Origin: Achromobacter dolens
GTDB lineage: Bacteria; Pseudomonadota; Gammaproteobacteria; Burkholderiales; Burkholderiaceae_B
Direction of reading: 5' to 3'
Assembly: GCF_902859745.1 (NCBI RefSeq)
Contig: NZ_CADIJW010000022.1
Coordinates: forward strand, 1-64,000
Length of the DNA stretch: 64,000 nt
Every line of letters starts with the position of its first letter. Within the stretch, counting starts at the first letter, position 1. The notes beneath the pieces are model-generated. The model did not search any database, was not told the DNA's origin, and was given only the letters and a program-made list of their open reading frames with translations. This document shows positions 5,259 through 9,391 of this stretch, one piece after another. A program made the translations under genes and the position numbers.

Positions 5259-6020
5259 TTACTTGGCAGCGGCGGCAGGCGCGGCCTGCACCTTGTTGGG
5301 CGGACGCACCGGCACGGCGGGCAGCGGCGCGGCGCCATCCGGCTTGACGAAGGTCAGCGTGGCCACATAGCCGATGGCGTCGTAGTGCTCGGGTCCGCTT
5401 GCGCCCGGACGATCACCCGGCGTGCGGTCGATGTGCATGGTGCGCAGCACGTACTGCGTTTTCCACGGCAGGCTGAAATGGGCCTTGCCCTGCTCATCGG
5501 TGTAGGCGGTCTGTTCCCAGCCCGAGTCCACCATGGCGACGAGCTTGGTCTTGGGCAGCGGCTGACCCTTGAACACCACCTGGAACTGGCCGGCCTGCCC
5601 CGTGGGGACGATGTCCATGACCAGCTTGGGCGCCGTCGCGGCGGCCGCGTCGGGCACGTAGCGGGCATTCATCTGGAACCAGGTCTGCAGCGGTTCGCCG
5701 CCATGCTTGAACGTACGCAGCGTGTTCATGGGGCCGTCGACCACCACGCCGTCCTTGCCACCCACCTTCTGCGACAGCGTGAAGCCATCGGCGGCCTTGG
5801 TCGCCGTCAACGGCACCTCGCCCTTGGCGGTGAGCAAGGTCGCCGTCATCTTGTCAAAGCCGTCCAGGTATCCCGGCGAGGCTTCGCGCAGGTTCTCGGC
5901 GAATTCTCCGAAACGGATGATGGCGGGCTTGCCCGCGGGCTGTTCGATCCAGACCTGGTGGGCCTGCGCGGTGGCGGTCAGCGCCAACGCCGCGATCGCG
6001 AGTGACAGGGTTTTCTTCAT
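5259..6020 (-). CDS. DUF4198 domain-containing periplasmic protein
   Basis: Exported protein of 253 residues. A clear signal peptide (MKKTLSLAIAALALTATAQA) is followed at once by HQVWIEQPAG, the typical mature start of DUF4198 proteins, which have histidine-led, immunoglobulin-like folds and are often linked to metal (nickel, cobalt or iron) uptake. The C-terminus is proline-rich (VRPPNKVQAAP). It stands alone on this strand, between a MerR gene and a long leader. A Fur-like half site in the leader would fit iron control, but that is weak. The precise role is unknown. Confidence 0.82.
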   Translation of the reverse strand: MKKTLSLAIAALALTATAQAHQVWIEQPAGKPAIIRFGEFAENLREASPGYLDGFDKMTATLLTAKGEVPLTATKAADGFTLSQKVGGKDGVVVDGPMNTLRTFKHGGEPLQTWFQMNARYVPDAAAATAPKLVMDIVPTGQAGQFQVVFKGQPLPKTKLVAMVDSGWEQTAYTDEQGKAHFSLPWKTQYVLRTMHIDRTPGDRPGASGPEHYDAIGYVATLTFVKPDGAAPLPAVPVRPPNKVQAAPAAAAK

Positions 6021-6433
6021 TGCGTGCTCCGGAAAATGAAACGTGGGAGTGAACAGCCGGCGCGCCGGGCGCATGGCCACGCCTCGCTCCGTTCCGGGGG
6101 AATGGAAAACCGCGCCGCGGCGATCGACGGCGCTCGCTCGGTCCGAGCATTGAATCCTGGCATTCGAAGACAACCCAAAATCACAAAGGAGAATCAATCA
6201 ATCACGATTATGTAAAACGACCTGGGCATGTCAAGGAAGCGACCCGCCGCCGAATGGCCCCCGCGCGGACCGCCGCCATGCACCGTCGGTCTCGTGCGCA
6301 GCGGCCTCGCGCGGCGCGCCGGACCCACGCGAAACCGCCTGGGACGGAGAATCAAAATCGGACTCTTCGTCGGCCGGCCCGGCCCCGGCAATGTCGGCGG
6401 CCTGGCGGTGGCACTCGCGCCGCCGTCGCGTCA
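6021..6433. other. Intergenic stretch, no gene recognised
   Basis: About 410 bp between the start of the DUF4198 gene and the end of the TetR gene. Open frames here look like GC-biased noise with arginine/proline-rich translations. The only recognisable element is the AT-rich tract near 6189-6211, probably part of the DUF4198 promoter region. Confidence 0.5.
6189..6211 (-). promoter_or_regulatory. Possible Fur-like site upstream of the DUF4198 gene
   Basis: An AT-rich tract in otherwise GC-rich DNA contains GAGAATCAATCAATCACG. The first half resembles the GAGAATCATTC half of beta-proteobacterial Fur boxes, but symmetry is poor and part is a simple AATC tetramer repeat. It lies about 170 bp upstream of the DUF4198 start. 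Treated as weak. Confidence 0.25.
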
Positions 6434-7027
6434 TCAGGCCGCCGCGCCCACCCGGCCGCGCAGGCCGTCGACGATCACGCCAAGTCCGAACTCGAACGCC
6501 GCCTCGGCATCCATGGCCCCGGCCAACTCGTTCCCGCCGACCGCCTCGTCCGCGCCCCCTTGCGTCATGGCCGCGCGCGCCTGTTCCTCGAGCACGCAGC
6601 CCAGCGTGTACTGCCCGGCGGCGAACAACGCCATGCCCGCCTGCTCCCGGGTGAAGCCGGCGCCGACCAGGTAGGCGACCTTGCGCGCGATGCCCGCCAG
6701 ATCGCCCGGCCCCGGGGCCGTGCCTGCGTGCAGGCGCGCCCCGTCCCGATGGGCCAGCAAGGCGCGGCGGAAGCTGCGCATGTTGTCCGCGAACCAGGCG
6801 GGCCATTGCGCCGCGCTCGCCGGCACCGCGAGTGTGTGGTGCCGCGCCAGCACGGCCGACGCCATCTCGCCGAGCAGCACCGACTTGTCGCGGAAGTGCC
6901 AGTAGAGCGTCGCCGACTCGACGCCAAGCTGCTGCGCCAGTCGCCGGGTCGAGAGGCCATCCAGCCCCACCTCATCCAGCAGCTCGAGCGCCACGTCCAC
7001 CACTTGTTCCCTGCGGATTTTTGCCAT
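6434..7027 (-). CDS. TetR repressor, close relative of classical tetracycline-sensing TetR
   Basis: Protein of 197 residues that aligns without gaps to Tn10-type TetR, from memory, through residue 147. The recognition helix is TLYWH at 40-44. Residues that contact tetracycline in TetR are kept at H64, N82, F86, H100, T103, P105 and E147; R104 is Ala and Q116 is Lys. The segments HRDGA (93-97) and TLGCVLE (141-147) are hallmarks of the TetR_C effector domain rather than generic AcrR-type regulators. It is divergent from an FAD monooxygenase, with tet-operator-like palindromes between. I infer a repressor induced by a tetracycline or similar polyketide. The changed contact residues leave the true ligand open. 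Confidence 0.9.
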   Translation of the reverse strand: MAKIRREQVVDVALELLDEVGLDGLSTRRLAQQLGVESATLYWHFRDKSVLLGEMASAVLARHHTLAVPASAAQWPAWFADNMRSFRRALLAHRDGARLHAGTAPGPGDLAGIARKVAYLVGAGFTREQAGMALFAAGQYTLGCVLEEQARAAMTQGGADEAVGGNELAGAMDAEAAFEFGLGVIVDGLRGRVGAAA

Positions 7028-7036
7028 GGTTGATTT

Positions 7037-7052
7037 CTCTAACGGTGATAGA
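7037..7052. promoter_or_regulatory. tet-operator-like site 1
   Basis: CTCTAACGGTGATAGA matches the core of tetO1 (CTCTATCATTGATAGA, from memory) at 13 of 16 positions, with one intact TGATAGA half. It lies ten bases from the tetR start and overlaps a plausible rightward promoter for the monooxygenase (TTGATT at 7030-7035, 17-base spacer, TTAAAT at 7053-7058). Confidence 0.7.
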
Positions 7053-7058
7053 TTAAAT

Positions 7059-7071
7059 TATCAGTGATAGA
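7059..7071. promoter_or_regulatory. tet-operator-like site 2
   Basis: TATCAGTGATAGA is identical to the 13-base core of tetO2, from memory. Centred 19 to 21 bases from site 1, it reproduces the two-operator layout of tetA/tetR divergent control regions, between the TetR gene and the FAD monooxygenase. Confidence 0.8.
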
Positions 7072-7093
7072 TTTTACCCAAGAAAGGTGTCAC

Positions 7094-8632
7094 ATGCCTG
7101 CATTTCCCTCGCGTACCGCCGTCCTGATCGTGGGCGGGGGCCTGGTCGGTCTGAGCGCCGGCCTCTTCCTGCAACGGCTCGGCGTTCCGTTCATCCTCGT
7201 CGAAAGGCAACAGGGCGTCTCGCCCCTGCCCCGCGCCCGCGGCATCCACACCCGCACCATGGAGCTGTTCCGCCAGGTCGGCGTGGAGCAAGCGGTGCGC
7301 GCGGCGGCCGACGGCGCCTGGAAGCAAGGCGCGTTTGGCGGCGCCCGCCGCGGCGCCACCCTGGTCGACGCGCAACCGATCATCAACATCCCGGCCATGC
7401 GCGCAAAAATGGCCGCGGCCGGCGCCTCGCCCACCGGCTTCGTGGCCTGCCCGCAGACCTGGATCGAACCGGTGCTGCGCCACGCCCTGCAAACGCGGGG
7501 CGGCGATGTGCGTTTCGGCCATGAAATGCTGGCGTTCGAGGACTCGGGCGCCTGCGTCAGCGCCCGGGTGCGCGGCCCGGACGATCACGAATCGGTCATC
7601 GAGGCGGATTGGCTGATCGGCGCCGACGGCGGTCGCGGCGCCATCCGCCGGCAACTGGGCATCGGCAGGACGGACACGGCCGCCCCTCAACACCTGGTCA
7701 ACATCTTTTTCCAGGCCGACCTGGCCCGCGTCGTCGAAGGCCGCACCTTCAGTCAGTGCGAAATCGCCAACGACACGGTGCGCGGCCTGTTCCTGGCGAT
7801 GAACAACACCGACAAGTGGTCGTTCCACCTGGAATACGATCCGGCCCTGGGGCCGCCCGCCGACGACGCCCTGCCGGGGCTGGTGCGGGCGGCGATCGGG
7901 CTGCGGGATCTCGAGGTCCGGATCCTGCAGCACGGCGCCTGGAACACCGGCGTATCCGTCGCCGATGCCTATCGGTCCGGCCGCGTTTTCCTGTGCGGCG
8001 ACGCCGCCCACCTGATGCCGCCCTGGGGCGGCTTCAACGCCACCACCGGCATCGCCGACGCCCACAACCTGGCCTGGAAACTCGCCGCGGTCATGCGTGG
8101 CGAGGCAGTTCCGGATCTGCTGGACAGCTACGACGCCGAGCGGCGCCCGCTGGCGCTGCGCAATGGCCGCCAGGCGCTGCTGCGCACCGACTTCGACGCC
8201 CGCTTCGGCATCGAGACCGAGCGCAATCGCGACAGTTTCAGGGAACTGATCGACCCCGGCGCCCTGATCCTGCGGCACCGCTATCCGGCAGCCGGGGCGC
8301 CCACACACGCCGAGGCGCCGGCCGCCGTTGACGTCCTGCAGGCCCAGACCGGCACGCGCTTTCCGCACGCCTGGATCCAGCGCGGCGCCGAGCGGCTCTC
8401 GACGCTCGACCTGTTCGGTGACAGCTTCGTCCTGCTTGCCGGTCCGGCGGCATCGATCGCGGCATCGACCCGCGCCAGCCTCGATCCGGCCACGCCCCGC
8501 GTGCTTGCCGCGGGCCGCGACTTCGTCTTCAGCGACGGCGACTGGGGCAGCCTGACGGGCCTGGCGGACAGCGGCACGGTGCTGGTGCGGCCCGATGGCT
8601 TCGTGCTGCGTCGCTCGGATGACGGCGCATGA
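7094..8632 (+). CDS. FAD-dependent aromatic/polyketide hydroxylase-type monooxygenase
   Basis: Group A flavin monooxygenase of 512 residues. It shows the Rossmann fold GGGLVG at 14-19, the DG motif (LIGADGGRGAIRR, about 174-186), and the GD motif with FAD-ribityl binding (FLCGDAAHLMPPWGGFNATT, about 299-318). The length and C-terminal extension (a thioredoxin-like domain in the family) match phenol hydroxylase/TfdB, polyketide hydroxylases of the RdmE/PgaE kind and rifampicin monooxygenase, and exceed TetX-type enzymes (about 380 residues). The ATG at 7094 follows AAGAAAGGTG. Control by a TetR-like repressor suggests it acts on tetracycline-like or other polycyclic aromatic compounds; that is inference. 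Confidence 0.88.
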   Translation: MPAFPSRTAVLIVGGGLVGLSAGLFLQRLGVPFILVERQQGVSPLPRARGIHTRTMELFRQVGVEQAVRAAADGAWKQGAFGGARRGATLVDAQPIINIPAMRAKMAAAGASPTGFVACPQTWIEPVLRHALQTRGGDVRFGHEMLAFEDSGACVSARVRGPDDHESVIEADWLIGADGGRGAIRRQLGIGRTDTAAPQHLVNIFFQADLARVVEGRTFSQCEIANDTVRGLFLAMNNTDKWSFHLEYDPALGPPADDALPGLVRAAIGLRDLEVRILQHGAWNTGVSVADAYRSGRVFLCGDAAHLMPPWGGFNATTGIADAHNLAWKLAAVMRGEAVPDLLDSYDAERRPLALRNGRQALLRTDFDARFGIETERNRDSFRELIDPGALILRHRYPAAGAPTHAEAPAAVDVLQAQTGTRFPHAWIQRGAERLSTLDLFGDSFVLLAGPAASIAASTRASLDPATPRVLAAGRDFVFSDGDWGSLTGLADSGTVLVRPDGFVLRRSDDGA

Positions 8633-8644
8633 CGACGGCCGGCC

Positions 8645-9391
8645 TCAAAGATCGAGCTGGTCCAGCAGGTCCTTGAACAGGTCGCGTTCGGGCATCTCGT
8701 CCAGCGCGATGTCCGCGTCCACGAACCACGATTTCCCGGCTTCGGGATGCGGGCCGCTCAGGACCACCAGGCCGCGCTCGAACGAATAGCGGGCCGCGGC
8801 CAGATCGCCATTCTCGTAGGTGGCGATCGCGTGAAAGCGCGCATCGCCGGGTTGCGACCGCAGGTAGGGGCCGTCCTGGAAGAAGACGCTGTCGTCCCTG
8901 CCCGCCCAACGGACAGCGACCGCCGCGTCCTCGATGGTCTTGATCGGGAAGCCGGGGCGGCCGACTTCCGAATCCAGGTCCTGCGCGATCAGGCCCAGGT
9001 TGGACGCGTCGGCGAGGTAGGCGCCCATGCACAGCCCAAGATAACGTCCGCCGCGCGCGACGAAACGGCGGATCGCGTCCACCCGCTCGTCGCCCAGGCT
9101 GCTCAGCGCGGCGGGAATATCCTGGCCGCCGCCCGGCTGCACGTACACGTCGTAGCGCGCCAGGGTGGCGTCGGAGATGTCGATCGGCTCGTCGGGGCCG
9201 ACGAAGTCGACCTGATAACGCGCGTCCGTCTTTTCGATGGCGCGCCGGGCCGCGGCCGCGCAGGAGTCGCACGCGGCCGGCCCGCGATACACCGCGACGC
9301 GCACGGACCTGTCCGCGGTGCCGGCAAGCGCCGCGGCGGGCGCTGCCAACGATAGCGCCAAGGCCAGAAGCAGGAAACGCAGGAACGCCAT
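8645..9391 (-). CDS. Exported BPL_N domain protein (glutamine-amidotransferase-like fold)
   Basis: Protein of 248 residues with a signal peptide (about residues 1-24, ending in AALAG) and a domain related to the N-terminal part of eukaryotic biotin-protein ligase (BPL_N). It carries YVQPGGGQDI and a nucleophile-elbow-like LGLCMGAYLA, reminiscent of class I amidotransferases. Function is not established for bacterial members. Its stop lies 12 bp from that of the FAD monooxygenase and the two genes converge, so they are not co-transcribed. A C-A-C-D-S-C cluster near residue 42 could bind metal or form a disulfide in the periplasm. Confidence 0.8.
   Translation of the reverse strand: MAFLRFLLLALALSLAAPAAALAGTADRSVRVAVYRGPAACDSCAAAARRAIEKTDARYQVDFVGPDEPIDISDATLARYDVYVQPGGGQDIPAALSSLGDERVDAIRRFVARGGRYLGLCMGAYLADASNLGLIAQDLDSEVGRPGFPIKTIEDAAVAVRWAGRDDSVFFQDGPYLRSQPGDARFHAIATYENGDLAAARYSFERGLVVLSGPHPEAGKSWFVDADIALDEMPERDLFKDLLDQLDL

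What the first reader, a model, noticed from the sequence alone, without database searches (positions are those of the whole stretch)
6434..8632. Classical tetracycline-type TetR with near-exact tet operators controls a large flavin monooxygenase
The repressor aligns gaplessly with Tn10 TetR through residue 147, keeps the TLYWH recognition helix and most tetracycline contacts (H64, N82, F86, H100, T103, P105, E147), and stands opposite two palindromes, one carrying the exact 13-base tetO2 core. But the controlled gene is neither an efflux pump nor a TetX-size enzyme; it is a 512-residue polyketide-hydroxylase-type monooxygenase. This could be a chromosomal tetracycline- or polyketide-sensing detoxification module, possibly close to the ancestor of mobile tet control. 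R104 to Ala and Q116 to Lys hint at a different ligand.
Basis: partly seen in the sequence, partly recalled or inferred. Interest (0 to 1): 0.8.

Follow-up and report, generated by a model that had tools for sequence, protein, structure and literature searches.

The report
Tet-operator-controlled polyketide-type flavin monooxygenase cassette
An Achromobacter-type bacterium carries a small two-gene cassette in which a cousin of the famous tetracycline repressor, with tetracycline-type operator sequences, appears to control an enzyme of the kind that hydroxylates large ring-shaped natural products, which suggests an inducible defence against tetracycline-like compounds whose exact chemical trigger is unknown.

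Summary
TetR (6434-7027, -) and a 512-aa flavin monooxygenase (FMO; 7094-8632, +) diverge from 66 bp holding two tet operators centred at 7045 (imperfect) and 7064 (13 bases of Tn10 tetO2). The pair is a cassette (6387-8632), missing from the same site in a related species. I found this FMO clade at nine loci (Achromobacter, Burkholderia, Pantoea); each has tet-operator-like sites. Eight have an adjacent tet-class TetR; the ninth has one perfect operator in a good promoter, its only tet-class TetR lying elsewhere. Trees indicate that the same enzyme is served by at least two, probably three, lineages of tet-type repressors. Across 80 TetRs, recognition-helix residue 40 matches the operator's flanking base in 76.

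The ancestor idea fails: this TetR lies in a separate clade, away from the Tet(A)-type efflux repressors tested. A104 and K116 do not by themselves exclude tetracycline. Best reading: an inducible detoxification cassette for tetracycline-like or other Mg-chelating aromatic polyketides; binding, ligand and enzyme activity are untested. MabTetRx-MabTetX is the working precedent. New variant of a known kind.

The parts
6434..7027 (-). tetR: tet-class repressor, 197 aa (TetR_N + TetR_C_1)
7094..8632 (+). FMO: 512-aa class A flavin monooxygenase with Rng_hyd_C domain, RdmE/GrhO5 type
   Evidence: G002 90%, Burkholderia 69-71%, G008 56-59%, Pantoea 46-48% identical
7055..7073 (.). tet operator, FMO side (core TATCAGTGATA 7059-7069, centre 7064)
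   Evidence: exact core once in genome; 13-base match to tetO2; conserved in G002 and, with base changes, in Burkholderia and Pantoea
7036..7054 (.). tet operator, tetR side (core 7040-7050, centre 7045, 2 mismatches), 19 bp from the first
   Evidence: the site at this place has 1 mismatch in G002 and in L048, L052, L053
7030..7058 (+). candidate FMO promoter: TTGATT, 17 nt, TTAAAT, with the tetR-side operator in the spacer
   Evidence: direct reading, inference; 8 of 12 consensus bases, and the scan with a cut-off of 9 found none. The G008 homologue has TTGAAA-17-TATAGT, 10 of 12
6387..8632 (.). cassette missing from the same site in G026, which holds 27 bp instead
   Evidence: blastn of L168 against the window: matches end at 8633 and resume at 6386; G015 also has the two flanking genes 572 bp apart
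8645..9391 (-). flanking gene, BPL_N domain protein; outside the cassette
   Evidence: present without the cassette in G026 and G015
5259..6017 (-). flanking gene, DUF4198 protein; outside the cassette

Best explanation
An inducible two-gene detoxification cassette. A TetR dimer (inferred from its family) binds two tet operators 19 bp apart between the divergent genes, one of them in the likely -35/-10 spacer of the FMO promoter, and so shuts off both genes. A Mg-chelated polycyclic aromatic ligand (a tetracycline, anthracycline, angucycline, anthraquinone or the like) binds the conserved H64/N82/F86/H100/T103/E147 pocket, frees the DNA, and the RdmE-type FMO then hydroxylates and inactivates that compound. 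Shown: genes, operator sequences, conservation, cassette boundaries, residue-40/operator match. Inferred: repression, ligand class, enzyme substrate, protective role.
For: Operators far beyond chance in this gap. All nine loci of this FMO clade that I found carry tet-operator-like sites: eight have two sites and an adjacent tet-class TetR, the ninth (G008) has one perfect site in a 10-of-12 promoter, whereas seven FMO relatives outside the clade have none at up to 1 mismatch in 6.5-11.5 kb of surroundings. Across 80 TetRs, Thr/Ser40 goes with C (165 of 176 half-sites) and Ala40 with T (121 of 132) next to TATCA; 76 of 80 rows agree, 3:0 in independent pairs. N82, H100 and K116 in 22 of 22, E147 in 21 of 22 of the clade. 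TetRs of the same clade include 11 beside another FMO family, tetracycline-destructase-like, in Actinobacteria. The FMO's closest solved relatives are named as aromatic polyketide monooxygenases (their reactions recalled). Precedent: MabTetRx represses MabTetX, an FMO, and is induced by tetracycline, doxycycline and anhydrotetracycline (PMC6143652 section 8).
Against: No binding, induction or enzyme data. Sequence is a poor guide to tetracycline inactivation: 21 of 26 candidates picked by destructase profiles gave no resistance in E. coli (PMC10944477, passages), and MabTetX gave none in M. smegmatis or E. coli (PMC9430549, passages). The pocket lacks R104 and Q116, and helix 9 is cut to about five residues in the model. 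The window's tetR-side operator has two mismatches; at 2 mismatches the genome holds as many control (reversed) matches as real ones, so that site rests on position and conservation. The FMO promoter misses the scan's cut-off. The independent-pair test has too few pairs to reach significance, and the four exceptions to the residue-40 rule include three Burkholderia FMO repressors and the G008 TetR's own degenerate upstream site.
Confidence: 0.65

Rival explanations
1. The narrower case: the inducer and substrate are tetracyclines themselves, so this is a third, Rng_hyd_C-bearing kind of tetracycline-inactivating enzyme under its own tet repressor.
For: H64, N82, F86, reported as the most important tetracycline contacts (PMC8326586, passages), are kept in the window TetR, with H100, T103, P105, E147. 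In G008 an FMO of the same clade has that genome's only exact match to TWTATCANTGATARW in its promoter, and the only tet-class TetR found there has H64, N82, F86, R104, Q116 and A40; A40 fits the T flanks of the FMO site. It looks as if an efflux-type tetracycline repressor controls the FMO in trans.
Against: NCBIfam tetracycline destructase is not among the FMO's matches at 1e-40 nor in its best 25. Both Pantoea repressors have W64 and H103. Trans control in G008 is inferred from sequence only, and the site upstream of the G008 tetR itself is degenerate (2 mismatches).
Confidence: 0.3
2. The enzyme is an ordinary aromatic hydroxylase acting on a simple phenol; the repressor and operators are inherited by descent and now sense a small phenolic.
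For: Phenylpropionate hydroxylase models also match the FMO, more weakly, and G002 has a second, 30%-identical FMO right beside tetR (L035 7716-9440). R104 and Q116 are lost.
Against: Best full-length relatives are aromatic polyketide monooxygenases. The metal-chelate residues H100 and E147 are kept. The same enzyme clade kept tet-operator-like sites through changes of repressor lineage. The two immediate neighbours are not ring-cleavage genes.
Confidence: 0.15
3. The operators are chance AT-rich palindromes and the TetR controls something else.
For: One of the two sites in the window is imperfect, and sites at 2 mismatches are as common as in the reversed control genome-wide.
Against: 0 of 20,000 shuffles; sites conserved in place in G002, four Burkholderia loci and two Pantoea plasmids; residue-40 match.
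Confidence: 0.02

Closest known systems
MabTetRx-MabTetX of Mycobacterium abscessus (MAB_1497c-MAB_1496c)
   Same: TetR-family repressor, tet operator and FAD monooxygenase; induced by tetracyclines (PMC6143652 section 8)
   Different: There the two genes form one operon; here they diverge. Sequence relation not tested, because its proteins were not at hand.
tetR-tetA of Tn10 and the other Tet(A)-type efflux determinants
   Same: repressor fold, operator core, divergent layout, most ligand contacts
   Different: partner is an FMO, operators 19 bp apart instead of 30 in Tn10, TetR in a separate clade, A104, K116, short helix 9 in the model
RdmE, GrhO5, RubL aromatic polyketide monooxygenases
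   Same: FAD_binding_3 plus Rng_hyd_C; full-length matches, E 5e-73 to 2e-84
   Different: RdmE profile scored 345 bits against a cut-off of 700; immediate neighbours are not polyketide genes; beside tet operators
TetR + destructase-like FMO pairs in Actinobacteria
   Same: same TetR clade, divergent FMO, at least two tet-operator-like sites in 10 of 11
   Different: FMO of about 425 aa without the Rng_hyd_C domain in the four given to Pfam; H64 replaced in all 11 (Ala in 9)

Membership tests
Tetracycline repressor TetR (classes A-H and kin) | TetR_N and TetR_C_1 domains above gathering score | tested here: met
   47.9 and 69.2 bits against 24 and 21
Tetracycline repressor TetR (classes A-H and kin) | NCBIfam NF010319 equivalog cut-off | tested here: not met
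   best family of the protein, but 212 bits against 265
Tetracycline repressor TetR (classes A-H and kin) | tet operator sequences between divergent genes | tested here: met
Tetracycline repressor TetR (classes A-H and kin) | groups with the Tet(A)-type efflux repressors in a tree | tested here: not met
   separate side of a 100/99 split; p-AU 4e-46 against grouping with Tn10 and TetR(Y); not every mobile class was in the tree
Tetracycline repressor TetR (classes A-H and kin) | release from DNA by tetracycline-Mg | not testable with these tools
   contacts H64, N82, F86, H100, T103, P105, E147 kept; A104, K116
Tetracycline destructase (Tet(X), Tet(47)-(56)) | matches the tetracycline destructase profile | tested here: not met
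   no NF033476 or NF033111 row at 1e-40 or in the best 25 of 55 families; a weaker match was not looked for
Tetracycline destructase (Tet(X), Tet(47)-(56)) | inactivates tetracyclines | not testable with these tools
   no assay
RdmE/GrhO5-type aromatic polyketide monooxygenase | FAD_binding_3 followed by Rng_hyd_C | tested here: met
   288.7 and 38.9 bits
RdmE/GrhO5-type aromatic polyketide monooxygenase | NCBIfam RdmE equivalog cut-off | tested here: not met
   345.6 bits against 700
RdmE/GrhO5-type aromatic polyketide monooxygenase | part of an aromatic polyketide gene cluster | tested here: inconclusive
   the immediate neighbours are BPL_N and DUF4198 proteins; the rest of the window was not annotated
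MabTetRx-MabTetX type TetR-FMO module | TetR repressor with tet operator beside an FAD monooxygenase | tested here: met
   by sequence only
MabTetRx-MabTetX type TetR-FMO module | one operon | tested here: not met
   genes diverge
MabTetRx-MabTetX type TetR-FMO module | induction by tetracycline, doxycycline, anhydrotetracycline | not testable with these tools
   no assay

The most novel reading that the evidence does not exclude
Tet repressors and tet operators are at root a sensing system for flavin monooxygenases as much as for efflux pumps: a whole clade of tet-operator-type repressors (17 of its 22 rows beside FMOs of two families, in Actinobacteria, Betaproteobacteria and Enterobacterales) guards polyketide-inactivating enzymes, and the RdmE-type branch is an undescribed family of inducible tetracycline/anthracycline-inactivating enzymes that spreads as a 2.2-kb cassette and keeps tet-operator control while changing the repressor that reads it.
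Probability: 0.3. Interest if true: 0.78.

Novelty: new variant of a known kind. Interest (0 to 1): 0.56.

Why it matters
The tet repressor is the textbook bacterial switch, known mainly from mobile efflux pumps. Finding the same operator code in front of polyketide-type monooxygenases, with a clade of its own repressors and with one enzyme served by different repressor lineages, gives a direct route to the natural ligands of tet-type switches and to a possible reservoir of enzymes that inactivate tetracyclines or anthracyclines. It also gives a natural TetR with the standard operator core but an altered pocket, of use as a sensor.

Tried and rejected
AlphaFold model of the FMO: only three rows were given and it failed (mean pLDDT 34), so no structural claim about the FMO rests on a model. 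Ancestor-of-mobile-tet idea: rejected by the tree and AU test. One clade of FMO_R-linked TetRs: rejected (p-AU 1.2e-6; the Pantoea row is a long branch, so its place is less sure). Defence-system reading: no PADLOC match. Phage origin: two weak phage hits, 28% over 42% of the FMO. Flanking repeats at the cassette ends: none stands out among the repeats listed (10 direct families; 25 of 37 inverted pairs shown). Wider occurrence: 0 of 394 genomes sampled from the order of Klebsiella had the FMO at E 1e-90 (no positive control in that set, so this shows little); of 399 genomes sampled from the window's order, three matched at E 1e-70: the window's own, and two at 38-39%; in both searches only up to three candidates per genome were scored. 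Tetracycline as the ligand of the FMO_D group: H64 is replaced in all 11, so I do not claim that those sense tetracycline. Paper searches that could have shown this pairing: over open-licence full texts only; none of the listed titles and abstract beginnings described an RdmE-type FMO under tet operators. The original MabTetX paper is not held, so it is cited through a review.

Rows dropped before counts: the 81-row tree and residue table leave out rows identical over residues 6-180 and do not hold L042, which is the same locus as L082; the careful tree leaves out 26 further near-duplicate or odd rows and adds L159; L163 is in neither tree; the operator test has 80 rows because L122 has no site.
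Full report
1. What is there. The window is contig 22 of a 6.29-Mb genome. The genus is taken to be Achromobacter because four relatives' contigs have the same lengths as named Achromobacter records (G004:C4 and L082 648,665; G025:C22 and L094 66,033; G012:C13 and L096 153,811; G031:C109 and L103 69,719). TetR (6434-7027, -, 197 aa) and FMO (7094-8632, +, 512 aa) diverge from a 66-bp gap. TetR has TetR_N and TetR_C_1; its best NCBIfam family is the tetracycline repressor, at 212 bits against a cut-off of 265. The FMO has FAD_binding_3 and Rng_hyd_C; its best solved relatives are GrhO5, RubL and RdmE over the full length, and its best NCBIfam model is aklavinone hydroxylase RdmE, below cut-off.

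2. Operators. The gap holds AAATTATCAGTGATAGATT (7055-7073) and TCTCTAACGGTGATAGATT (7036-7054), centres 19 bp apart; the first shares 13 bases with Tn10 tetO2. TATCANTGATA occurs exactly once in the genome (expected 0.35 by composition); 0 of 20,000 shuffles of the gap give one exact and a second site. Looser sites are uninformative genome-wide: at up to 2 mismatches to a longer pattern the reversed control matches about as often. The tetR-side site fills the 17-nt spacer of TTGATT-TTAAAT, a promoter guess that misses the scan's threshold.

3. A cassette. In G026 the flanking BPL_N and DUF4198 genes lie 407 bp apart. Blastn against the window ends at 8633 and resumes at 6386, so the pair with its gap (6387-8632) is replaced there by 27 bp. 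G015 also has both flanking genes, 572 bp apart. Whether this is gain or loss is not decided. By FMO, 3 of 43 genomes of the genus and 3 of 65 of Burkholderia have it, so it is sporadic.

4. Same pair elsewhere. Divergent tet-class TetR and FMO with two operator-like sites: G002 (TetR 87%, FMO 90%), Burkholderia arboris twice (L048, L053), B. cepacia LK29 (L052), a third Burkholderia genome G506 (L159) and two Pantoea plasmids (L049, L163). Spacing is 19 bp except 21 in Pantoea. In the plasmid collection, all 3 records with an FMO hit at 1e-90 have this pair. A ninth FMO, in Achromobacter G008 (59%), has no adjacent tet-class TetR. It has that genome's only exact match to TWTATCANTGATARW, centred in the spacer of TTGAAA-17-TATAGT (10 of 12). 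G008 has one tet-class TetR, elsewhere (C17), and no efflux partner was found beside it.

5. Repressor changes around one enzyme. In the FMO tree the eight proteobacterial rows of this kind form one clade (100/100), with G008 and Pantoea as sisters (100/99) (L163 was not in that tree). In the TetR tree (56 rows) the Achromobacter and Burkholderia repressors lie in one group, the Pantoea one among the actinobacterial FMO repressors, and the G008 one among the Tet(A)-type efflux repressors; one clade for the seven FMO_R-linked repressors is rejected (p-AU 1.2e-6). The Pantoea row is a long branch, so that join is the least sure. Seven more distant FMO relatives (L050, L051, L143, L144, L160, L161, L162) have no site at up to 1 mismatch in 6.5-11.5 kb.

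6. The wider clade. Their divergent partners: 62 Tet(A)-type pumps, 8 destructase-like FMOs, 3 EmrB-type pumps, 2 RdmE-type FMOs, 1 Tet(42)-like pump, 1 Rox-like FMO, 3 without a partner that matched my references (Pfam and NCBIfam of representatives). 74 of 80 have at least two sites at up to 2 mismatches within 160 nt (base shuffles expect 0 to 0.35 per locus). With same-genus and plasmid rows added and duplicates removed (81 rows), the tree splits into 22 rows (FMO_D 11, FMO_R 6, EmrB 3, Tet(42)-like 1, Dyella 1) and 59 rows that hold the 55 Tet(A)-type efflux repressors, Tn10 and TetR(Y) among them, the Rox-linked one and three without a partner (the split has 100/99). The best-matching solved structure 3fiw was not itself placed in the tree.

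7. Recognition code. Residue 40 of TetR and the base next to TATCA agree: Thr 112 C of 120, Ser 53 C of 56, Ala 121 T of 132 half-sites; 76 of 80 rows; 3:0 in independent pairs with one tie, too few for significance. The window (T40) has C at 3 of 4 half-sites. The G008 FMO site has T on both sides, as its Ala40 TetR would need. The four exceptions are L048, L052 and L053 (A40, one T-type and one C-type site each) and L039, the G008 TetR itself, whose own upstream region has only two overlapping sites of 2 mismatches.

8. Ligand. N82, H100, K116 are invariant in the 22-row clade, E147 in 21; R104 is kept in 2. On the other side Q116 is in 37 of 59, K116 in 18, R104 in 40. H64, N82 and F86 are the strongest tetracycline contacts in AbTetR, and R104A there still binds tetracyclines (PMC8326586, passages). 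The two Achromobacter repressors keep H64, N82, H100, T103 and E147 (G002 has L86); the Burkholderia ones tested have S103; both Pantoea ones have W64 and H103; the 11 actinobacterial ones lack H64. The predicted helix 9 is only residues 167-171; in TetR(D) helix 9 keeps the drug in the pocket (PMC8326586, passages). So a Mg-chelated polycyclic ligand is likely; tetracycline is possible for Achromobacter and less so for Pantoea. This is inference.

9. Mechanism and known systems. Best reading: repression of both genes, release by a polycyclic aromatic ligand, hydroxylation by the FMO. The nearest worked example is MabTetRx-MabTetX (PMC6143652 section 8). MabTetX did not give resistance when moved to M. 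smegmatis or E. coli (PMC9430549, passages), and 21 of 26 profile-picked destructase candidates were inactive in E. coli (PMC10944477, passages). Such results warn against calling this FMO a destructase from sequence.

10. Verdict. The claim of closeness to the ancestor of mobile tet control fails. Substrate and inducer remain open and are directly testable.

Noticed in passing
L039 5541-6569 (G008:C17): A tet-class TetR reads straight into a NUDIX hydrolase domain (342 aa, TetR_N + TetR_C_1 + NUDIX); its usual efflux partner was not found beside it.
   Followed up: partly
L054, L055, L057 (Klebsiella grimontii, Raoultella terrigena, K. michiganensis): Tet-class TetR (55-56% to the window's) opposite a DHA2/EmrB-type pump, with tet-operator-like sites 19 bp apart.
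   Followed up: partly
L059, L060, L068, L071, L073, L075, L107, L116, L134-L136: Actinobacterial TetR of the same clade opposite a FMO that, in the four scanned, scores for tetracycline destructase well below cut-off (202-220 of 550 bits); at least one tet-operator-like site in all 11.
   Followed up: partly
L121 5995-6624 and 4408-5910 (Actinoallomurus): A TetR relative opposite a rifampin-monooxygenase-like FMO with one weak operator-like site; the usual ligand residues N82, H100 and E147 are not kept.
   Followed up: no
L058 6001-6618 (Dyella monticola): TetR close to the window's (59%) with two tet-operator-like sites 19 bp apart but no FMO or pump matched opposite; D147 and E105.
   Followed up: no
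L035 7716-9440 (G002): A second FMO (574 aa, FAD_binding_3 + Rng_hyd_C, 30% to the window FMO) lies between tetR and the DUF4198 gene.
   Followed up: no
L051 3902-5554 (Streptomyces fungicidicus plasmid p1): A roughly 39% relative of the window FMO lies within 3 kb of ketosynthase and chain-length-factor genes, in line with an aromatic polyketide type of substrate in the wider family.
   Followed up: no
80 TetR-operator pairs: Residue 40 of the recognition helix predicts the operator base next to TATCA in 76 of 80 rows.
   Followed up: yes
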